Under the pieces are notes generated by a model that was not told the origin of the DNA, did no database searches, and saw nothing but the letters and a program-made list of their open reading frames with translations. This document shows positions 43,911 to 54,243 of a stretch of 64,000 bases of DNA, piece by piece; position 1 is the stretch's first letter; every line of letters begins with the position of its first letter. The position numbers and the translations under genes are program-made. The stretch is from Oscillospiraceae bacterium (GTDB lineage Bacteria > Bacillota > Clostridia > Oscillospirales > Ruminococcaceae), in NCBI GenBank assembly GCA_012520915.1, contig JAAYNJ010000019.1, positions 1 through 64,000 of the forward strand, written 5' to 3'.

Positions 43911-43947
43911 GATGAGCTATAAGAATCAAATGAAGGGAGGGAGTTTT

Positions 43948-45366
43948 TTGAATCTGGAAGATTATTTGGGAGAAACAAATTTCTATGACAAAAAAGAAAA
44001 GGTAGAAAGAAACAGACCCAAATCTTGGTTAAAGAGTGTGTCCGCTTTTGCAAACGGTCGTGGTGGAAAGCTTTTATTCGGAGTTAAAGAGGATAATACG
44101 ATTGCAGGCTTAAAAGATTTTCAAGGGGACGCAGAGTTCGTCAGCGAAGCCATAAAAACAAAAATAGATCCCATCCCCGAGGTTGATATTGAAATAGAGG
44201 AGTTTGAAGAGAAGTTCGTACTTATCTTAACTGTTTTTTCGGGAAGAAATACACCGTATTTCTTTGTAGAAAGCGGTTCAAGAACCGCATATAAACGAGT
44301 CGGAAACCAAAGTGTTAATGCTTCCCAAATGGATATAGTCAATCTATCCCTAAAAGGACAAAACCGCACCTATGATTCTTTGCTGTCAGAAAAACGATTA
44401 GAGGAAGTTTCTTTTAAAGGACTCAAGTTGGAGTATCTCAATAGAGTTGGAAAACCACTTGAAGGCAGAGACTTAAAGTCATTTGGTTTAGTAAATGAGG
44501 AAGGAATTCTGACGATAGCGGGTACTCTTTTTGCAGATGGGTATCAAGTTTATCAATCTAGAGTATTTTGTACGAGATGGAATGGACTTGAAAAGACTCA
44601 TGGACTTATGGAGGCTTTAGACGACAAAGAGTTTGAAGGAAATCTCCTATACCTGCTCAATGCGTCTTTAGATTTTGTAAAAAGAAACAGCAAAAAAATG
44701 TGGAAAAAAGGACCTGTGTATAGAGTAGAGTATCCCGAATATCCGGAACGAGCAGTTCAGGAGGCGATAGTCAATGCGCTGATTCACAGAGATTATTCAG
44801 TGATTGGTAGTGAAGTTCATATTGATATTTATGATGACAGATTAGAAGTTTACTCACCAGGCGGTATGTATGATGGTACTTTTATCCAGGATATAGACAT
44901 ATATAATATTGCGTCTACCAGAAGAAATCCTGTTTTAGCTGATGTTTTTGCAAGAATGGACTTAATGGAAAGACGAGGCTCGGGATTGAGAAACATTATC
45001 GAAACCTATGAGTCAGAAGAGAACTTTAAGGAAAATTTAAAACCCGAATTCAGATCAACAGAGACTTCGTTTTTTGCAGTTTTGAAAAATTTAAATTATG
45101 AGGGTCAAAGTGACGGTCAAAATGAGGGTCAAAGTGACGGTCAAAAACTAACACCTGTTGAAAGACGAAATAAATTACTTGAAATTATAAATAAAAATCC
45201 AAAAACAACAGCTTTACAACTATCTCAAACTCTTAACGTATCTATAAGCACAGTTGAACGAGATTTAGCAAAGCTAACAAAAGACGGCAATATAGAATAT
45301 GTAGGAAGTTCCAAAGCCGGAGAGTGGATAGTTAAAACGAATTTGTCCGGAAAAGACACTAACTGA
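43948..45366 (+). CDS. Schlafen AlbA_2 domain ATP-binding regulator with winged helix
   Basis: 472 residues from a TTG start with AGGGAGGGAG five bases upstream. Domain order: AlbA_2/Schlafen-type domain (about 1-120, KSVSAFANGRGGKLLFGV), a linker, a GHKL-type HATPase_c_4 domain (about 245-330, EAIVNALIHRDYS, then VYSPGG), and a C-terminal winged helix (about 405-470). A Gly-Gln-Ser/Asn-Asp repeat linker (GQSDGQNEGQSDGQ) precedes the winged helix. Such proteins are often encoded in defence islands beside restriction systems. The linker plus helix start is repeated as a fossil at 47191-47314. Confidence 0.85.
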   Translation: MNLEDYLGETNFYDKKEKVERNRPKSWLKSVSAFANGRGGKLLFGVKEDNTIAGLKDFQGDAEFVSEAIKTKIDPIPEVDIEIEEFEEKFVLILTVFSGRNTPYFFVESGSRTAYKRVGNQSVNASQMDIVNLSLKGQNRTYDSLLSEKRLEEVSFKGLKLEYLNRVGKPLEGRDLKSFGLVNEEGILTIAGTLFADGYQVYQSRVFCTRWNGLEKTHGLMEALDDKEFEGNLLYLLNASLDFVKRNSKKMWKKGPVYRVEYPEYPERAVQEAIVNALIHRDYSVIGSEVHIDIYDDRLEVYSPGGMYDGTFIQDIDIYNIASTRRNPVLADVFARMDLMERRGSGLRNIIETYESEENFKENLKPEFRSTETSFFAVLKNLNYEGQSDGQNEGQSDGQKLTPVERRNKLLEIINKNPKTTALQLSQTLNVSISTVERDLAKLTKDGNIEYVGSSKAGEWIVKTNLSGKDTN

Positions 45367-45600: not shown

Positions 45601-45969
45601 ATGAAGACATATAACAAAGCGAATATTCCTTTGGCGAAGGAAATGAGAAAAAATATGACGCCGTGGGAGCGTAAGCTTTGGTATGATTATTTAAGAAATC
45701 ATACTTATCGTTTTCAAAGACAAAAAGCGATAGGAAATTATATAGTCGATTTTTATTGTGCAAAAGCGAAGCTGTGTATAGAACTCGACGGCGGCGGACA
45801 TTACGAAGAAGAACAGATAGAAAAGGACAAAAAGAGAACATCGGAACTTGAAGCTATGGGCTTTAAAATCTTTAGAGTGAGCAATCTCGATATAGACAAA
45901 AACTTTTCCGGAGTCTGCGAAGCAATAGATTTGGCTGTAAATCGCTTCCTCGAAAACAAAGAAAGATAG
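45601..45969 (+). CDS. DUF559 domain protein (Vsr/PD-(D/E)xK-like endonuclease fold)
   Basis: 122 residues: LRKNMTPWERKLWYDYLRN, FQRQKAIGNYIVDFYC, LCIELDGGGHY and a final FRVSNLDIDKNF. The pattern Asp (VDFYC), then Glu-Leu-Asp-Gly, matches DUF559/Vsr-like nuclease folds. Proteins of this family are widespread beside restriction and mobile genes; a cellular role has not been fixed. No strong ribosome site precedes the ATG. Confidence 0.8.
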   Translation: MKTYNKANIPLAKEMRKNMTPWERKLWYDYLRNHTYRFQRQKAIGNYIVDFYCAKAKLCIELDGGGHYEEEQIEKDKKRTSELEAMGFKIFRVSNLDIDKNFSGVCEAIDLAVNRFLENKER

Positions 45970-46110
45970 CGTTTATCCCTCCCTCAGGTTGCGTTGCAAC
46001 CAGCTCCCTCGGTCTGAGGGAGCCTAGATAAAGAAAATATAAAGCCTCCACCGGACGGGGGAGGTGGCACAGCTTTAGCTGTGACGGAGGGGGAGAAAAG
46101 TGAAGATAAA
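45965..46110. repeat. Dispersed hairpin repeats
   Basis: A CCCTCCCTCAGGTTGCG...CTCCCTCGG unit and a CCACCGGACGGGGGAGGTGGCAC...GACGGAGG unit. Confidence 0.7.
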
Positions 46111-46146
46111 TCTACCAAACCCGATATTTATAAATACAGGAGAAAT

Positions 46147-47088
46147 ATGGAAAAGATAAAAGACATTAAAATAAAAACGCCGATAGATATTGATCTTCGG
46201 CTTCTCGAAATTTTGTTGGCGGACAGGACGACGGGCCAAAATATTATCTGGTCCGACAGCGAATATGAGCTTTTGGGAGAAGAATATGATTCCCGCTCTC
46301 CGATAATGCCGGAGCTTATCAGAGGGAGCAATTTCGAACTTATCAAGCCGAGGGCGATGTTGTATGGGGGTCGCGCAGAGGGTTTCAGTCCGGAAGAGGC
46401 GGAAAAGTTTGTGCCGGCGTGGCTGTGCAACGAGCGAAACAACCTCTTAGACGAGGAATGGTTCGGCAGGAAAAATGTTTTTAACGAACCCTGGAGCAAG
46501 CATTGGGAACCGGCGGAACCGCCGATAAAGTTTCCGGACTATCCGGAAGAAACGGATAAAAACTGGCAGGACTATGTTGACGAGCGGAGAATAGAGATAA
46601 ACTGCGGAGAGGCGCCTCATCTGACAAGCCGATACGACGTAATCTCGGGGAAATACATAAAGGTAAAAAACCGAATCGGAATTCTGGATAGAAAATTCCG
46701 CGTTGTAAGTGAAAACGTGAGAAACGAAATTGAGTGGCGGAAGTGGTCGAAACGGGCTGTTCAGAGTGTCTATGGCTACGAGTTTCAGGGGGACTACCTG
46801 CTTATAGCGCGCCTGAACCTGTTCTACAGCTATGTCGACTTTTCGCACAAAATAATGTGGACTGATCCGACGGAAGAGGATCTCAGGGAAATCGCGGAGA
46901 TAATCTCCTGGAACATCTGGCAGATGGACGGCGAAAATATGACTCCGCCCTACATAGGGGATAGGGATAAGTTCAGACAGACATCGCTTTTCGGGGGAGA
47001 AAACGAAGAAAAAAAGACAACCTACTGCCGGATAATGGATTGGCAAAAGGGAAAGGAAACGGACTTTATCGAGTTTGCCAAAGGCTGA
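46147..47088 (+). CDS. SAM-binding half of a split adenine methyltransferase, paralog A (motif X altered)
   Basis: 313 residues, start at 46147 with ACAGGAG upstream. It is about half identical to the next gene. Family members are often labelled restriction endonuclease subunit M. By eye the order of adenine-methyltransferase motifs can be followed: a motif X-like stretch (KFVPAWLCN, about 87), a motif I-like INCGEAPHL (about 150-160), a motif II-like YGYEFQGDYLLIARLNL, and a motif III-like ISWNIWQMDG. There is no NPPY catalytic motif. In this copy the usual FTP of motif X is FVP, suggesting altered or weaker SAM binding. It sits upstream of paralog B and the large helicase-methylase. Confidence 0.7.
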   Translation: MEKIKDIKIKTPIDIDLRLLEILLADRTTGQNIIWSDSEYELLGEEYDSRSPIMPELIRGSNFELIKPRAMLYGGRAEGFSPEEAEKFVPAWLCNERNNLLDEEWFGRKNVFNEPWSKHWEPAEPPIKFPDYPEETDKNWQDYVDERRIEINCGEAPHLTSRYDVISGKYIKVKNRIGILDRKFRVVSENVRNEIEWRKWSKRAVQSVYGYEFQGDYLLIARLNLFYSYVDFSHKIMWTDPTEEDLREIAEIISWNIWQMDGENMTPPYIGDRDKFRQTSLFGGENEEKKTTYCRIMDWQKGKETDFIEFAKG

Positions 47089-47133
47089 GGCGTTTTGATT
47101 AACTAAAGTACGGACAAACAGGTTTAAGAGTTT

Positions 47134-47314
47134 AAAAACCTTCTCGATAAACTCCTTCCGAAGTTTCGGGCGGGGAGAGTAGGGGAGTAAATTTAGAAAA
47201 ATGACGGTCAAAGTGACGGTCGAAATGTGGGTCAAAATGACGGTCAAAAATTAACACCTGTTGAAAGACGAAATAAATTGCTTGAAATTATAAATAAAAA
47301 TCCAAAAACAACAG
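47134..47314 (+). pseudogene. Fossil of the 214-residue gene / AlbA gene pair
   Basis: 47134-47190 reads KNLLDKLLPKFRA and a short tail before a stop, resembling the end of the 43266 gene (KNLPDELLLKFRA). Right after it, 47191-47314 matches the Gly-Gln repeat linker and winged-helix start of the AlbA gene (near-identical to 45090-45212, including CACCTGTTGAAAGACGAAAT). The order is the same as in the intact pair, so this is a collapsed duplicate. The similarity stops at ACAACAG, close to the start of paralog B. Confidence 0.78.
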
Positions 47315-47344
47315 AGATTATTCTTAGGAAACAAATTTTATGGA

Positions 47345-48295
47345 TTGCATATGAAAAACGGCATAGATATTGATGAACAAAAATTAATAGATATTAACCC
47401 TAAGCTTCTCGATGTCCTGCTAATAGACAGGACATCGGGTCAAAATATTATTTGGGGAACCGAAGACTACATAGATTTGGGATATTCCTATAATTCACAT
47501 TATCCGATAACAGCAGAGCTTATTTCGGGGAAAAATTCCGGGGTTATAAAGCCGAGAGTGGTCAAGTCGAAAGAACTCCAAGGGGATAGAACCAAAGAAA
47601 AGGCGGAGGTTTTTACCCCCTCCTGGTTGTGCAACGAACAGAACAATCTCATAGATGAAGCCTGGTTCGGCAGGAAAGAAGTTTTTAACATTTCGGGAGA
47701 TAAAAGCTGGAAAACGGTAAAGGGGAAAATAGAGTTCCCTGAAGAAAAAGGCAAAAGCTGGAAAGACTATGTAGACGAGCGGAGGCTGGAAATAACCTGT
47801 GGTGAGGCGCCTTACCTGGTGAGCCGCTATGACACCACTACGGGTGAATTTATAAAGGTTAACAACCGAATCGGATTGTTGGACAGAAAAATGCGGATAG
47901 TTTCTGAAAATACCGAAACGGAAGAGGAATGGTTAAAATGGTCTGAACGGGCATTTCAGAGTATCTACGGCTTTGAATTTCAGGGAGACAGTCTGCTTTT
48001 AGCGCGAGAAAATCTGCTCTACAGTTATGTTGACTATATGAAAAATCATATTGAGAGAGAGCCGACGGAAAAGGAACTGATGACTATTGCGAAGATAATC
48101 TCATGGAATATTTGGCAGATGGACGGTCTTACCATGACGATACCCTATAAAAAGGTGGTAGAACAGTTTGAGCAGATTTCGCTTTTTGAAGAAGAGAACG
48201 AAGAAAAAGAGATATCCTATTGCAAAATAAGGGATTGGCGCAGCAAGAAGGACATAGAGTTTTTCAAGTTAACAGAGGGTGAGGTAGGTCAGTGA
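47345..48295 (+). CDS. SAM-binding half of a split adenine methyltransferase, paralog B
   Basis: 316 residues. The motif X-like VFTPSWLCN is intact here (about 89-97), followed by a motif I-like ITCGEAPYL (Cys about 152), a motif II-like YGFEFQGDSLLLARENLL (Tyr about 208) and a motif III-like ISWNIWQMDGL (Asn about 255). The NPPY motif is missing and is found instead in the downstream protein. The stop overlaps the start of that gene (GTGA), so translation is coupled. Start: TTG at 47345 or ATG at 47351; neither has a good ribosome site, probably because the upstream sequence is a recombination scar. Motif assignments are my reading by eye. Confidence 0.7.
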   Translation: MHMKNGIDIDEQKLIDINPKLLDVLLIDRTSGQNIIWGTEDYIDLGYSYNSHYPITAELISGKNSGVIKPRVVKSKELQGDRTKEKAEVFTPSWLCNEQNNLIDEAWFGRKEVFNISGDKSWKTVKGKIEFPEEKGKSWKDYVDERRLEITCGEAPYLVSRYDTTTGEFIKVNNRIGLLDRKMRIVSENTETEEEWLKWSERAFQSIYGFEFQGDSLLLARENLLYSYVDYMKNHIEREPTEKELMTIAKIISWNIWQMDGLTMTIPYKKVVEQFEQISLFEEENEEKEISYCKIRDWRSKKDIEFFKLTEGEVGQ

Positions 48296-51200
48296 AACAA
48301 AGCATTTTAGGTCTAAACGAATTAGAAGACTTAATAATCGGAAGGGTGACGCCCCGAGTATACGCTTTTACGACGAATACCGTACCGAACTATACCAAAG
48401 TGGGGGATACATACCGCCCCGTTTCTTTGCGCTTAAAAGAATGGTCGATGCATTATCCGGGGCTTGAAAAAACTTTTGAAGATAAGGCGATGGTGTCGGA
48501 AGACATTTATTTCAGAGACTTTTCGGTTCATTCCTATCTTGAAAATGACCTTGAAAAACCACGTTTGACTGAATCTGAATTTCCTCATGCACACTATAGC
48601 AGAGAGTTTTTTAGAGAAACGTCATCTAAAGATATTAAAGAAGCGATAGACGATATAAAAATAAATTACGAAAAGAATACCGATAAATATACCTATTACA
48701 GATCAAAAGATCGCCTGCCTGAAGTATATGAATATTCTCGAGGTGAGAGCTGGGAGTTAAGGCCTAACCAGAAGGAAGCAGTCGAGAATTTTATAAAAGC
48801 GATTAAATCGGGTAGAAAAAACCTGCTTATGTACGCCGTTATGCGCTTCGGTAAATCATTTACCTCGCTTTGTTGCGCCAAGGCTATGGATGCTAAGCTT
48901 GTAGTAGTTGTTTCTGCTAAAGCCGATGTAAAAGAGGAATGGAAAAAGACGGTGGAAAGCGCCGGAAATTTCAAGAATTATGTATTTTTAACCGAGAAGA
49001 AACTAAAAGAAAGTGAAAAAGCGATTAAAGAGGTATTAGAAGAGGGCAAAACCGCAGTTGTTTTTCTCACCCTTCAGGATTTACAGGGTGAAGAAAAAAA
49101 AGATAAACATAGGGAGGTCTTTGAAAGTCAGATTGACCTTCTGATAGTGGACGAAACCCATTTCGGAGCAAGGGCTGAATCTTTTGGCGCTGTCCTAATG
49201 GTAAGCAAATCTGAGCAAAAATACCTTACCAAATTAGAGGACGAATGCGTATTGCAAGATGAAGCTGATGAAGTAATTAAGACTTTGAATTCAAAAGTCC
49301 GGATTCACCTATCCGGAACTCCGTATAGGATTTTGATGGGAGGCGAATTTCAGGAAGATGATATAATCTCCTTTGTTCAATTTCCGGATATTGTTAATGA
49401 GAAAGAAAAATGGGATGAAGAAAACTTAATGAAGGATGGTGTGGAAGAATGGGATAACCCATATTATGGATTTCCACAGATGATAAGATTCGCTTTTATG
49501 CCTAACGAATCTTCTATTGAAAAAATGAGAGCTCTTAAAGAGTCCGGAGTATCTATAGGACTAACTGGATTGTTCAGTCCCCAAAGTATTAGAAAAGACA
49601 ATAGAGAAAATAAGCACAGGAAATTTATTAATGAAAATGAGGTTTTGGCTTTATTAAAAGCAATCGATGGCACAGAACAAGATGAGAATATTTTTCCTTT
49701 TTTAGATTATGACAAAATTAAAAAAGGCCAAATGTGTAGGCATATGGTTATGGTTTTACCACGCTGTGCTTCATGCGATGCTATGGAAGAACTATTAATC
49801 CAAAATAAAGAGAATTTTAAGCATCTCGGAGAATATCAAATTGTAAATATTTCTGGACTAGACGCTCACAATAAATATCCCGAACCGTCTGACATTAAGA
49901 GAACGATTAAACAGTTAGAAAAAGAAAATAAAAAGACTATTACCTTAACTGTAAATCGCATGTTAACGGGATCAACTGTTGAAGAATGGGATACGATGAT
50001 TTTTCTGAAAGATACTGCATCGCCACAAGAATATGATCAGGCGATTTTTAGGCTTCAAAACCAATTTATTAGGACTTTATACAGTGAAGCGGGTGCTATT
50101 AAAGAAAATAAGAAACCTCAAACTTTATTGGTAGACTTTAGTCCCCATAGGTTATTTAGTTTGCAAGAACAGAAGTCCTTGATTTTTAACGCAAATATAG
50201 AAGAAAGAGGTAATTTGCGATTAAAAGAAAGAATAGATGAAGAATTACACATATCTCCTGTAATAACTATGAATCAAAACCAGATTCAAAGAGTCAAAGC
50301 AACAGATATTTTAAAACATATAAGCCAATATAACAGTGAAAGAAGTATATCTGATGAAGTAACGGATATACCATTTGATTTTGCTTTATTGAATAATGAA
50401 TTAATTAAAGAGATAATAGCAAGACAAGCTGACTTTAACTCTAAAGAGGGTTTATCATTTGATGTGCATGAAGGGGAAGAAAGAGATTTAGATGTGGATA
50501 AAACAACTCCAGAGATAGATGATTCGCCTGCGCCTTCTGATTCAAAAGAAGATTATGAAGGATATGAAGAAGAGGAGATTGATTTCTGCAAGAAATTCCA
50601 AACATACTATCAAAGAATATTGTTTTATACATTTTTAATTGACAAACAGATATATTCTCTAGATGACATTATTAAAAGCATTCCTGAAGAAAATAATAAA
50701 AGAATACTGAAAAACCTTGGATTACGTGAAGATGTTCTAATTGAAATAGCTAAGCACATGGATCCATTTGTTAGAAATGCTCTGGATTACAAGATTCAGA
50801 ATATATCTAACCTGTCTTTTGATGAGACAAAGACTGCTCTAGAAAGAGCAGAAACATCTTTAAATAAGTTTAATAGGTTATCAGAATCTGAAATAATCAC
50901 TCCTAAATCTACATGTGATGAAATGGTTGCGCTCATCCCGGAAGATGGGTTTAAGAGAATTTTAGAGAATGGAGAAGTGTTTTTAGATATAGCAAGTAAG
51001 GCGGCAGAGTATCCGGTAGCTATTTATAAGAGGCTAATTGGATTAGGATATAAACATGATGAAATAAAAGACAGAATATTCGCTATCCCGACTTCTCCTC
51101 CTGCATATGAATTGACAAGAAAGTTTTACGAGATATTAGGACTTAATACGGACAATATAGCTAAAGAGTTTACGTCATACGATTTATTGGATATAAAAGA

Positions 51201-52329
51201 CGAAAAGGCTAATATCGACTACGACAGGGTGAGTTTACTGCTTAGACAGAATAAACCCTTTAATGAAATAACTCTTAAAGAAGATATAAACGAGGGAGGT
51301 GAGAGGGTGAAGTTTGGAGCAGTGGTAGGCAATCCGCCATATAATGTAAGAGATGGAGGTGCAGCAGCAAGTGCAAAACCTATCTATCATGAGTTTGTTT
51401 TATTATCAAAAAAAATTTCGACTAATTATATGTCTTTTGTAACTCCTACTCGTTGGTTTGCAGGAGGTAAGGGGCTGGATTCATTTAGAGACCAAATGCT
51501 TTCAGATAATACTATTCGAGAATTGCATGATGTGCTAACTCCAGAGGATATTTTTCCTGGAACTAACAATAGAGGCGGTATATGTTATTATTTAATGGAT
51601 AGCGAAAAAATATCTAATGTTGTAAGGGTTGTCACACATAGGAATAATAAAATTGTTTACGATAAATTAAGAACGATGAAGCAAAAAGGGATAGACATTT
51701 TTATTAGAGATTCAATAGGTGTTTTAATAGCTGAAAAGATATTTAAGTTAGAACATAAAAGCTTTTCTGATATTGTTTCTTCGAGAAAACCATTTGGACT
51801 GGAAGGTAACTTAATTAATAGTACCTTATTTAAAAAATCTAAAAAGGGACTTTTGAATCCGGTTAAATGCTACGGGAAGGCAAATGCAGTAGGATTTATT
51901 GAAAAAGAACTAATTACTAAAAACATATCCTGGATAGATTCTTGGAAGGTATATGCTCCTTATGCTAATAACATAGGAACAGAATTGAATGACGATAATC
52001 AAAATAGTTTTGTTGGAGAGCCATCTTCAGCTTCTACAGAGACCTTCCTTGTATTTGGAGCAGACTTGGACTTGTCGGAAACATCGGCTAATTATTTATC
52101 TAAATATATGAAAACAAAGTTTGCAAGGTTTTTGCATGGACTATCTAAGATAAGTCAACATGGTACTAAACAAACATATAGATTTGTTCCAATGCAGGAT
52201 TTCACGAGCTCATCAGATATTGTTTGGTCTAAATCTATTGATGAAGTCGACGAACAACTTTTTGATAAGTATGGACTTACAGAAGAAGAAAAAACACACA
52301 TAAAGACTTCGATTAAAAAAATGGATTAG
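48292..52329 (+). CDS. GIY-YIG-like nuclease / SF2 helicase / NPPY methyltransferase restriction protein
   Basis: 1345 residues. Region 1 (about 15-125) looks like a GIY-YIG nuclease: RVYAFT (Tyr24), YTKVGDTYRPVSLRL, a VHSYL strand and SREFF (Glu105). Region 2 (about 150-650) is an SF2 helicase/translocase: MRFGKSFT (Lys188), DETH at 287-290, LSGTPYR near 341, and a late YDQAIFRLQNQ arginine motif. Region 3 (about 740-990) is a helical coupler. Region 4 has VVGNPPYN (NPPY 1014-1017), the catalytic motif of an N6-adenine methyltransferase, then a probable target-recognition part to the end. SAM-binding motifs are absent and lie in the upstream subunit. It resembles single-chain ISP/IIG restriction enzymes, but with a split methylase. 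The start is GTG with GAGGTAGG upstream. Confidence 0.82.
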   Translation: MKQSILGLNELEDLIIGRVTPRVYAFTTNTVPNYTKVGDTYRPVSLRLKEWSMHYPGLEKTFEDKAMVSEDIYFRDFSVHSYLENDLEKPRLTESEFPHAHYSREFFRETSSKDIKEAIDDIKINYEKNTDKYTYYRSKDRLPEVYEYSRGESWELRPNQKEAVENFIKAIKSGRKNLLMYAVMRFGKSFTSLCCAKAMDAKLVVVVSAKADVKEEWKKTVESAGNFKNYVFLTEKKLKESEKAIKEVLEEGKTAVVFLTLQDLQGEEKKDKHREVFESQIDLLIVDETHFGARAESFGAVLMVSKSEQKYLTKLEDECVLQDEADEVIKTLNSKVRIHLSGTPYRILMGGEFQEDDIISFVQFPDIVNEKEKWDEENLMKDGVEEWDNPYYGFPQMIRFAFMPNESSIEKMRALKESGVSIGLTGLFSPQSIRKDNRENKHRKFINENEVLALLKAIDGTEQDENIFPFLDYDKIKKGQMCRHMVMVLPRCASCDAMEELLIQNKENFKHLGEYQIVNISGLDAHNKYPEPSDIKRTIKQLEKENKKTITLTVNRMLTGSTVEEWDTMIFLKDTASPQEYDQAIFRLQNQFIRTLYSEAGAIKENKKPQTLLVDFSPHRLFSLQEQKSLIFNANIEERGNLRLKERIDEELHISPVITMNQNQIQRVKATDILKHISQYNSERSISDEVTDIPFDFALLNNELIKEIIARQADFNSKEGLSFDVHEGEERDLDVDKTTPEIDDSPAPSDSKEDYEGYEEEEIDFCKKFQTYYQRILFYTFLIDKQIYSLDDIIKSIPEENNKRILKNLGLREDVLIEIAKHMDPFVRNALDYKIQNISNLSFDETKTALERAETSLNKFNRLSESEIITPKSTCDEMVALIPEDGFKRILENGEVFLDIASKAAEYPVAIYKRLIGLGYKHDEIKDRIFAIPTSPPAYELTRKFYEILGLNTDNIAKEFTSYDLLDIKDEKANIDYDRVSLLLRQNKPFNEITLKEDINEGGERVKFGAVVGNPPYNVRDGGAAASAKPIYHEFVLLSKKISTNYMSFVTPTRWFAGGKGLDSFRDQMLSDNTIRELHDVLTPEDIFPGTNNRGGICYYLMDSEKISNVVRVVTHRNNKIVYDKLRTMKQKGIDIFIRDSIGVLIAEKIFKLEHKSFSDIVSSRKPFGLEGNLINSTLFKKSKKGLLNPVKCYGKANAVGFIEKELITKNISWIDSWKVYAPYANNIGTELNDDNQNSFVGEPSSASTETFLVFGADLDLSETSANYLSKYMKTKFARFLHGLSKISQHGTKQTYRFVPMQDFTSSSDIVWSKSIDEVDEQLFDKYGLTEEEKTHIKTSIKKMD

Positions 52330-52751: not shown

Positions 52752-53708
52752 ATGAAGTTCTCAGAAGAACAACTTAAATGGTATGCTGAACCAATAAGTG
52801 ATACAGAAGATGAGCAATGCAAAAATGCTGTTCGTATGGTCGGAGATGCATTAAAAGAATTAGGGTTTAGAGATAAAGACTCTATCCGAAGAGCGTATGA
52901 TGATTCTTCATCTTATGAATTAAGAATGTTAGGAGCTAACGGCTATGATGTAAAGATTTTTATGCAAGGCTCTTATGCTAACAACACTAATGTGAGAGGA
53001 TATAGTGATGTAGACATTGCCGTAGTACAGGAAGATATATTTCAAACAGAATATAGGATTGGAGCTGGTGATGATAATTATGGCATTGTAAGCGCAGGCC
53101 GAAAAGATAGATCTTTTAAAGATGTAGTGGAAGAAGCCTTGATTAAAAAGTTTGGGGATGACGTAGAAAGAAAAAACAAATCGATAAAAATTTATGGCAA
53201 TAATTATCGTAAAGATGCAGATTCAGTTCCGGCTATGAGATATAGAAATTATTCGATGGATTATAGTAATAACATAGATAATTATATCCCGGGCATTATT
53301 ATTGTTCCTGACTATGGTGAAAGAATTATTAATTATCCCGAAGTTCACCTAAAAAATGGCATAGAAAAAAATAAAAGTACAAATTATTATTTTAAAAAAA
53401 TGGTTAGGATAGCAAAAGAAATGAGATGCCAGATGGAGGAAAAGGGATATAATTATGCAAAAAAAGCGACCTCTTTTAATGTAGAGTGTTTATTATGGAA
53501 CATTCCTGATGGTGAATTTTTAAAACATGATAGCTACAGAATGAAATTTAAAAATATCGTTGACTACTTATATATAACTAGACTATTCATGTTTTACTTC
53601 AAGGAGGTTAATGACATAAAATACATAGGAGAAGATGATAAAGAAAGAGAGCGTGTGTGTAAAGGATTTATAGAAGAACTAGAGAGGTTTTATGAATATG
53701 AATTCTAA
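52752..53708 (+). CDS. CBASS CD-NTase (cyclic oligonucleotide synthase)
   Basis: 318 residues of the CD-NTase family. The nucleotidyltransferase signature is clear: GSY (Gly73-Ser74) followed by SDVDIAV with metal Asp86 and Asp88. A third acidic strand follows in DADSVPAMRY. The C-terminal half is helical. On phage infection such enzymes make a cyclic di- or trinucleotide that activates a partner effector. The product cannot be told from sequence. The next gene overlaps its 3' end and encodes a Cap15-like effector, so this is a minimal two-gene system without Cap2/Cap3 or HORMA/TRIP13. Composition is markedly AT-rich, suggesting transfer. Confidence 0.92.
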   Translation: MKFSEEQLKWYAEPISDTEDEQCKNAVRMVGDALKELGFRDKDSIRRAYDDSSSYELRMLGANGYDVKIFMQGSYANNTNVRGYSDVDIAVVQEDIFQTEYRIGAGDDNYGIVSAGRKDRSFKDVVEEALIKKFGDDVERKNKSIKIYGNNYRKDADSVPAMRYRNYSMDYSNNIDNYIPGIIIVPDYGERIINYPEVHLKNGIEKNKSTNYYFKKMVRIAKEMRCQMEEKGYNYAKKATSFNVECLLWNIPDGEFLKHDSYRMKFKNIVDYLYITRLFMFYFKEVNDIKYIGEDDKERERVCKGFIEELERFYEYEF

Positions 53709-54243
53709 TATGAAATCTTTGGTAAAATTTTCAGGATATATATCTTTAATCGTTTACTTTTGTTTAGTTATACTGAAAAAGCCTATTGATTTAATAGAGT
53801 ATATTGAGTTGCTTTCTGAATCAGTGGGATTAGTAATATTTATAGTTTTAACATATGAAAAGTGGTTGTGGAGGTTTAACCCGTTGATTAAAACTCCTAA
53901 GTTTAAAAAAGAGTATTCTGGACTTTTAAAATATAATTATGGTGGAACCCTAGGTGAGAAGGAAGTTGAAATTTCTATTAAACAAACCCTACTATCTACA
54001 AGAATTAAAATTAAAACGGATGAAATCATTAGTAAAAGTATTACAAGTGAAATGTTAGAAGAAGATGGAGAATATGTTTTATACTACTCTTATAAAACCA
54101 ATCCGTTGAGCGAGTATAGTGATAAGAACCCCATTCAGTTTGGAACTTGTCGACTCTTGATAGACGACGTTGAACAGTTCCAAGGTCAATATTGGACCAG
54201 CAGCAAAACGATAGGAGATTTATATTTCAAAGCAAAAATATAA
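53692..54243 (+). CDS. Cap15-like CBASS effector (2TM plus beta-barrel)
   Basis: 183 residues. Two hydrophobic helices (about 11-28 and 42-58) are followed by a WRFNP turn and a beta-rich domain (YNYGGTLGEKEVEISIKQTL, YVLYYSYKTNP, FGTCRLLI, QGQYWTSSKTIGD). This matches the S-2TM-beta/Cap15 architecture, in which the barrel binds the cyclic nucleotide and the helices oligomerise to break the inner membrane. It overlaps the CD-NTase gene by 17 bases; AGAGAGG lies just before the ATG, inside that gene. Two further Met codons (53698, 53710) are possible starts. Confidence 0.87.
   Translation: MNMNSNMKSLVKFSGYISLIVYFCLVILKKPIDLIEYIELLSESVGLVIFIVLTYEKWLWRFNPLIKTPKFKKEYSGLLKYNYGGTLGEKEVEISIKQTLLSTRIKIKTDEIISKSITSEMLEEDGEYVLYYSYKTNPLSEYSDKNPIQFGTCRLLIDDVEQFQGQYWTSSKTIGDLYFKAKI

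What the first reader, a model, noticed from the sequence alone, without database searches (positions are those of the whole stretch)
46147..52329. Restriction system with a methyltransferase split into a SAM-binding subunit and a nuclease-helicase-NPPY subunit
The 316-residue protein at 47345 shows, in order, stretches that fit motifs X (VFTPSW), I (CGEAPYL), II (YGFEFQGD...ARENLL) and III (ISWNIWQMDG) of N6-adenine methyltransferases, but has no NPPY. The 1345-residue protein whose start overlaps its stop has NPPY (1014-1017) but none of the SAM-binding motifs, and carries a GIY-YIG-like domain (Tyr24, Glu105) and an SF2 helicase at its front. Read together they make one ISP/IIG-like enzyme cut between motifs III and IV. 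Known single-chain enzymes of this kind use other nuclease folds and keep the methylase whole. Motif matches were made by eye.
Basis: partly seen in the sequence, partly recalled or inferred. Interest (0 to 1): 0.78.

Follow-up and report, generated by a model that had tools for sequence, protein, structure and literature searches.

The report
Split DNA methylase sharing its half
A bacterial anti-phage restriction system of the little-described DrdVI kind, in which the DNA-marking enzyme is cut in two and its target-reading half appears to be shared by two alternative cofactor halves, one for marking the host's own DNA and one built into the DNA-cutting motor.

Summary
The 316-aa protein (A) carries N6-adenine methyltransferase motifs X, I, II and III and no NPPY. 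It is homologous to M1 of the "split methylase" DrdVI (profile match 99.1%); M1+M2 of DrdVI and MaeIV methylate DNA when cloned. The 1345-aa chain is GIY-YIG nuclease, SF2 translocase, B, N, where N holds NPPY and the recognition domain. In 133 homologues B never has the motif II acid; A always does.

What seems undescribed: N is found fused to A, fused to B, or free. An A-N fusion also folds as a whole methyltransferase, with A in B's slot. Across 66 loci B evolves with the translocase (rho 0.87); A and N vary almost independently of it. A phage with no translocase gene keeps A and N while its B is a frameshifted relic. Best reading: A+N writes the mark; B+N reads it inside the restriction chain. 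Exchange of A for B on N is inferred, not shown. New variant of a known kind.

The parts
46081..47088 (+). Tandem paralogue of A (335 aa; ATG at 46147), probably altered in motif X
   Evidence: 54% identity to A; PADLOC PDLC03390 E=3e-91; 4 of 45 near-invariant positions broken: K94L, R102F, V109K and the motif X Thr T111V, 106/106 in other A proteins
47345..48295 (+). A: cofactor (SAM-binding) half of the split N6-adenine methyltransferase, motifs X-I-II-III, 316 aa (M1-like); ATG at 47351 may be the true start
   Evidence: PADLOC PDLC03390 E=2e-127; hhalign to M1.DrdVI-type profile prob 99.1, E=9e-19; motif counts in 106 homologues; no break at 45 near-invariant positions
47609..47626 (+). 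A motif X (VFTPSW)
   Evidence: T-P in 106/106 homologues
47786..47818 (+). A motif I (LEITCGEAPYL)
   Evidence: E, C, G, E, P each 106/106
47966..48016 (+). A motif II (YGFEFQGDSLLLARENL)
   Evidence: acidic residue at the end of beta-2 in 106/106
48098..48127 (+). A motif III (ISWNIWQMDG)
   Evidence: D in 104/105
48292..52329 (+). Large chain R-B-N, 1345 aa: GIY-YIG nuclease, SF2 translocase, B, N; its start overlaps the stop of A
   Evidence: PADLOC PDLC03626 REase_MTase_IIG over 7-1344; Pfam ResIII and Eco57I
48292..48681 (+). GIY-YIG (T5orf172-type) nuclease domain, residues 1-130, Tyr24 and Glu105
   Evidence: Pfam T5orf172 in 9 of 9 relatives scanned; window itself below threshold
48727..50211 (+). 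SF2 helicase/translocase (approximate bounds)
   Evidence: Pfam ResIII 155-346, E=1.3e-15; invariant RFGK, DExH, SGTP and QAxFR in alignment A7
50869..51306 (+). B: second motif X-III half, residues 860-1005, with altered cofactor pocket
   Evidence: AF2 model of 759-1345, pLDDT 90.6, pTM 0.87; PDB matches from residue ~106 of the model; B family conservation
50983..51015 (+). B motif I-like LDIASKAAEYP: conserved Lys kept, motif I Gly lost in the window
   Evidence: K in 132/133, G in 131/133 B domains; window is one of the two exceptions
51103..51135 (+). B motif II-like FAIPTSPPAYE, lacking the acidic residue
   Evidence: acid at this position in 0/133 B domains against 106/106 A proteins
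51304..52326 (+). N: catalytic half (motifs IV-VIII) plus target recognition domain, residues 1005-1345
   Evidence: alignment A5 with N of the main topologies; Pfam Eco57I; AF2 model
51331..51342 (+). NPPY, residues 1014-1017
   Evidence: invariant in alignments A4 and A5

Best explanation
The locus is a restriction-modification system of the DrdVI split-methylase kind made of three evolutionary units: A (cofactor half), N (NPPY plus target recognition half) and R-B (GIY-YIG nuclease, SF2 translocase, altered cofactor half). In this window N is fused to R-B and A is separate. A pairs with N to make the active N6-adenine methyltransferase that marks the host's sites (shown by published work only for the relatives DrdVI and MaeIV; inferred here). 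In the restriction chain, B takes A's place on N, giving a target-reading module that recognises the same site but is poorly equipped to methylate it; an unmodified site then licenses ATP-driven translocation and cutting by GIY-YIG (inferred). Because one N serves both partners, marking and cutting necessarily share one recognition sequence. That A displaces B from N, in time or between copies of the chain, is inferred from fusions and models and is not shown.
For: Family: hhalign of A against M1.DrdVI-type prob 99.1; pDrdVI locus reads M1, M2 (B-N), R; M1-2.DrdVI methylates GCAGCC and M1-M2.MaeIV GCACY when cloned in E. coli (PMC6430315; PMC10113651). Split point: A-N fusions join at motif III/IV. 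Sharing: the same modules occur as A|R-B-N, A|N|R-B, A|R-B|N, A-N|R-B, A|B-N|R and A|R|B-N, and these interleave in the N tree (16 changes, least possible 3). Same slot: models of B-N and of an A-N fusion both align full length with CamA (Z 20 and 17-18) and M.TaqI (Z 17 and 12.7), with B or A over the same N-terminal part. Roles: motif II acid 106/106 in A, 0/133 in B; B evolves with R (Spearman 0.87) and A does not (0.01 with R). Phages PTm1/PTm5 keep A and N, B is a frameshifted relic, and R was not found in their genomes; FNU4 has A-N and no R (positive control).
Against: No experiment on this locus, and no model of A with the window's large chain as a complex (single-chain prediction only). 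AF2 places B on N confidently, so A must displace B, use another copy of N or bind some other way. B keeps motif X, the motif I acid, and in most relatives a motif I Gly, so it may still bind SAM. The low A-R and A-N correlations come from loci chosen by similarity to A, which narrows the range. The A-N model rests on only three paired rows.
Confidence: 0.72

Rival explanations
1. B+N in the large chain is itself the working methyltransferase, and A is an accessory or regulatory protein.
For: AF2 gives B+N a complete methyltransferase fold with high confidence; B keeps motif X and a motif I acid, and in DrdVI-type M2 a near-canonical motif I DPxxKSGxFL.
Against: The motif II acid is missing in 133/133 B domains, and the window also lacks the motif I Gly. 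A keeps every cofactor residue of motifs X, I and II in 106/106. A-N fusions and phages with A and N but no intact B exist. 36 of 39 DrdVI-type B-N genes have A directly upstream; of the exceptions, one lies at a contig start, one (L184) has none upstream, and L051 has a window-type A instead.
Confidence: 0.12
2. A+N is the methyltransferase and B is only a relic or docking domain of the translocase that never takes A's place on N.
For: B tracks R rather than N and its cofactor site is altered, as for a domain kept for scaffolding.
Against: B keeps its own signature (Lys 132/133, Gly 131/133, Thr or Ser after beta-2) across four families, and a similar K-x-G-E stretch is seen by eye in jumbo-phage homologues. 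AF2 packs it on N as A does.
Confidence: 0.3
3. A Type ISP-like single-chain enzyme (as LlaGI) with a spare small protein.
For: Domain order nuclease, helicase, methyltransferase fold, recognition domain; LlaGI 5ffj aligns over 2-569 of the B-N model, Z 18.9.
Against: The nuclease is GIY-YIG, not Mrr; the cofactor site of B is altered; A also accompanies the DrdVI-type relatives, which were found through B-N and not through A (36 of 39).
Confidence: 0.05

Closest known systems
DrdVI (M1, M2, R; Deinococcus wulumuqiensis pDrdVI) and MaeIV: the 'split methylase/RM' family
   Same: M1 is homologous to A; M2 is B-N; R is GIY-YIG plus SF2 translocase (for DrdVI)
   Different: In the window R, B and N are one chain (R-B-N), A carries extra segments, and there is a second A-like gene upstream. 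The passages I read in the cited papers do not mention B or sharing of N.
Type ISP enzymes LlaGI / LlaBIII
   Same: Nuclease, translocase, methyltransferase fold and recognition domain in this order; structural match Z 18-19
   Different: Mrr-like nuclease and whole cis methylase in ISP (PMC3874165); here GIY-YIG and the competent cofactor half in a separate protein
Type IIG-like systems with separate parts, such as OspHL35III (PMC4752239)
   Same: Single recognition domain, separate translocase and GIY-YIG functions
   Different: Their methylase/specificity protein is MmeI-like and in one piece
M.AquI and M.EcoHK31I, natural two-subunit methylases (PMC3404938)
   Same: One methyltransferase fold made from two proteins
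   Different: They are C5-cytosine methylases split between other motifs, with no alternative second half described

Membership tests
DrdVI split methylase/RM family | Small M1 subunit with motifs X-I-II-III and no NPPY | tested here: met
   hhalign prob 99.1 to M1.DrdVI-type profile
DrdVI split methylase/RM family | M2 part with NPPY and target recognition domain, homologous to M2.DrdVI | tested here: met
   N of the window 40% identical to N of M2.DrdVI in alignment A5; B followed by N in both. In the window this part is fused to R, in DrdVI it is a separate protein; the fusion state varies among relatives
DrdVI split methylase/RM family | GIY-YIG nuclease joined to SF2 translocase | tested here: met
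   nuclease family shown through close relatives
DrdVI split methylase/RM family | m6A methylation needing M1 and M2 together | not testable with these tools
   Published: M1 and M2 of DrdVI and MaeIV cloned together are active (PMC6430315, PMC10113651); not tested for this locus
Type ISP (LlaGI, LlaBIII) | N-terminal Mrr-like (PD-(D/E)XK) nuclease | tested here: not met
   Relatives of the N-terminal domain hit T5orf172 (GIY-YIG type)
Type ISP (LlaGI, LlaBIII) | Single polypeptide carrying a complete competent methylase | tested here: inconclusive
   Complete fold in cis but altered cofactor motifs
Type IIG (REBASE sense: single recognition domain shared by nuclease and methylase) | One recognition module for the whole system | tested here: met
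   One N per system in the intact loci examined; PMC6430315 classes DrdVI as IIG

The most novel reading that the evidence does not exclude
One catalytic/recognition half (N) alternates between two cofactor halves that compete for the same strand of the methyltransferase fold: with A it writes m6A, with B (a conserved, altered pocket tied to the translocase) it reads the unmethylated base and fires restriction. B's conserved Lys/Gly/Thr pocket may bind SAM differently or bind another ligand as a licence to cut.
Probability: 0.4. Interest if true: 0.8.

Novelty: new variant of a known kind. Interest (0 to 1): 0.6.

Why it matters
Every restriction-modification system must keep its marking and cutting activities on the same site. 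Sharing one NPPY/recognition half between two cofactor halves would solve this inside the methyltransferase fold itself, and N would then act as a movable specificity cassette, comparable to HsdS. The family is common (at least 559 relatives of A found in one genome scan) and yet rests on brief notes in the papers I could search, so subunit exchange and the role of the altered cofactor pocket can now be tested directly.

Tried and rejected
Sequence search of the PDB with A or the large chain: nothing. Idea that phages carry orphan A genes to capture the host's N as anti-restriction: weakened, because several jumbo-phage contigs with a lone A have a distant R...N gene (1815-1928 aa) with a weakly matching B-like stretch; contigs where no N was found may be fragments, so no claim is made. 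Idea that A has no counterpart in known systems: rejected by M1.DrdVI. Idea that the large chain lacks a cofactor half: rejected. Idea that B is merely decaying: rejected by its own conserved Lys/Gly/Thr in 133 sequences. Folding the two window proteins as a complex was not possible (single-chain prediction, 1200-residue limit), so natural A-N fusions served instead.

Full report
WHAT IS THERE. The small protein shows motif X (VFTPSW), I (LEITCGEAPYL), II (YGFEFQGD...ARENL) and III (ISWNIWQMDG) and no NPPY. The large chain has Pfam ResIII (155-346) and Eco57I (929-1088) and NPPY at 1014-1017. PADLOC profiles cover both nearly end to end: PDLC03390 MTase_II (E 2e-127) and PDLC03626 REase_MTase_IIG over residues 7-1344. 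Pfam's T5orf172 (GIY-YIG type) is hit by the N-terminal domain of the nine relatives scanned but not by the window's own copy.

A KNOWN KIND. A search for relatives of the NPPY part led to plasmid pDrdVI of Deinococcus wulumuqiensis NEB 479. Its genes are a 212-aa protein with textbook motifs (VFTP, FLEPACGSGNFL, YGIELLEDN, LNLIHGDAL), a 539-aa protein with NPPY, and a GIY-YIG/helicase protein. The profile of the window's small protein aligns to the M1.DrdVI-type profile over motifs X-III with probability 99.1 and E 9e-19. Published notes call this the split methylase/RM family: M1-2.DrdVI gives m6A at GCAGCC (PMC6430315), M1-M2.MaeIV at GCACY (PMC10113651), and PMC4996451 describes DrdVI as a fused translocase and REase, with a relative that resembles M1 at one end and M2 at the other.

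A SECOND COFACTOR HALF. Between the helicase and NPPY the large chain has a stretch B (about 860-1005) with its own motif X (ITPK), motif I-like LDIASKAAEYP, motif II-like FAIPTSPPAYE and motif III-like YDLLD. AlphaFold2 on residues 759-1345 with 31 relatives gives mean pLDDT 90.6 and pTM 0.87. The model matches whole DNA adenine methyltransferases: CamA over model residues 106-571 (Z about 20), M.BseCI, M.TaqI over 110-549 (Z 17.2) and LlaGI over 2-569 (Z 18.9). So the large chain has a complete methyltransferase fold in cis. Its cofactor site is altered in a conserved way. In 133 B domains of four families the motif I Lys is in 132 and the Gly in 131 (the window is one of the two exceptions), and the motif II acid is in none. 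In 106 A proteins the motif X TP, motif I E-C-G-E-P and motif II acid are all 106/106.

THREE UNITS, MANY FUSIONS. Profiles for A, B, N and R were then laid on all ORFs. Most window-like loci are A | R-B-N (68, plus six with R interrupted). Others are A | N | R-B (L008, L087, L094, L098, L112), A | R-B | N (L131), A-N | R-B (L103, L105, L108; L107 with A interrupted), A | R | B-N (L069) and A | B-N | R (L051 and the DrdVI-type loci, 36 of 39 with A directly upstream). N is therefore fused to A in some systems and to B in others. In a maximum-likelihood tree of 63 N domains the states interleave: 16 changes against a least possible 3, with well-supported sister pairs such as L094 (N free) with L105 (A-N), and L146 (B-N) with L170 (A-N). 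In 66 A | R-B-N loci the pairwise distances of B follow those of R (Spearman 0.87), while A follows neither (0.01, 0.00) and N only weakly (0.20-0.25 for its catalytic part). Those loci were chosen by similarity to A, so A's range is narrowed.

THE OTHER PAIRING ALSO FOLDS. AlphaFold2 on the natural A-N fusion of L108 (672 aa) gives pLDDT 85.2 and pTM 0.82. It aligns with CamA over model residues 67-656 (Z 18.3) and with M.TaqI over 88-637 (Z 12.7). This rests on predicted models with few paired sequences.

A NATURAL EXPERIMENT. Tenacibaculum phages PTm1 and PTm5 carry an intact A and an N protein that begins at motif IV. Directly upstream lies a relic of B in two reading frames (E 6e-10), identical in both phages. 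R was not found in either genome nor in Fusobacterium phage FNU4, which has an A-N fusion; the same R profile finds all five positive controls. These phages thus keep A and N and lack R and an intact B, as expected if A+N is the writing enzyme and B belongs to restriction.

MECHANISM. Best reading: A+N methylates; R-B-N recognises the same site through the same N, with the altered half B in A's place, and couples an unmodified site to translocation and GIY-YIG cutting. Shown here: homology, module sharing, fold models, motif conservation, phage relics. Shown elsewhere for relatives: m6A methylation by cloned M1+M2. Inferred: exchange of A and B on N, the reading role of B, and the order of events.

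LIMITS. No experiment was run and no complex could be modelled. B may still bind SAM. Phage lone-A genes were considered as anti-restriction devices and not claimed, because several jumbo-phage contigs also carry a distant R...N gene.

Noticed in passing
window 46081-47088: Tandem paralogue of A with four near-invariant positions broken, including the motif X Thr (T111V); none of the other loci profiled has two full-length tandem A genes. Role unknown: spare, decaying or regulatory copy.
   Followed up: partly
window 52752-54243: CBASS-like pair directly downstream: oligonucleotide cyclase (PADLOC PDLC00801 E=4e-97) and Cap15-type 2TM effector (Pfam Cap15_CD_rec E=2e-18); the region looks like a defence island.
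   Followed up: no
window 43912-45366 and 45601-45969: AlbA_2/Schlafen-type protein with RecG-like C-terminal domain, and a DUF559 protein upstream.
   Followed up: no
L215 (1928 aa ORF, minus strand), L217 (1815 aa ORF): Jumbo-phage contigs of 233 and 412 kb encode very large R...N proteins with an A gene far away on the same contig; between R and N lies a weakly matching stretch with K-x-G-E (TILDFYGSKIGEIA, FVLDAYGGKIGEFA).
   Followed up: partly
L109, L111, L121, L122, L125, L126: Virus contigs with a well-conserved A gene and no detectable N on the contig; fragments are possible, but capture of the host's N by a phage A would be worth a test.
   Followed up: partly
L188-L193, L197, L200, L202, L207-L214: A different set of virus loci in which an N-like protein precedes a small A-like protein, the reverse order; not classified.
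   Followed up: no
L010 12131-14189: The Enterococcus faecium plasmid copy of the system is followed by a DUF262 protein and a hypothetical protein.
   Followed up: no
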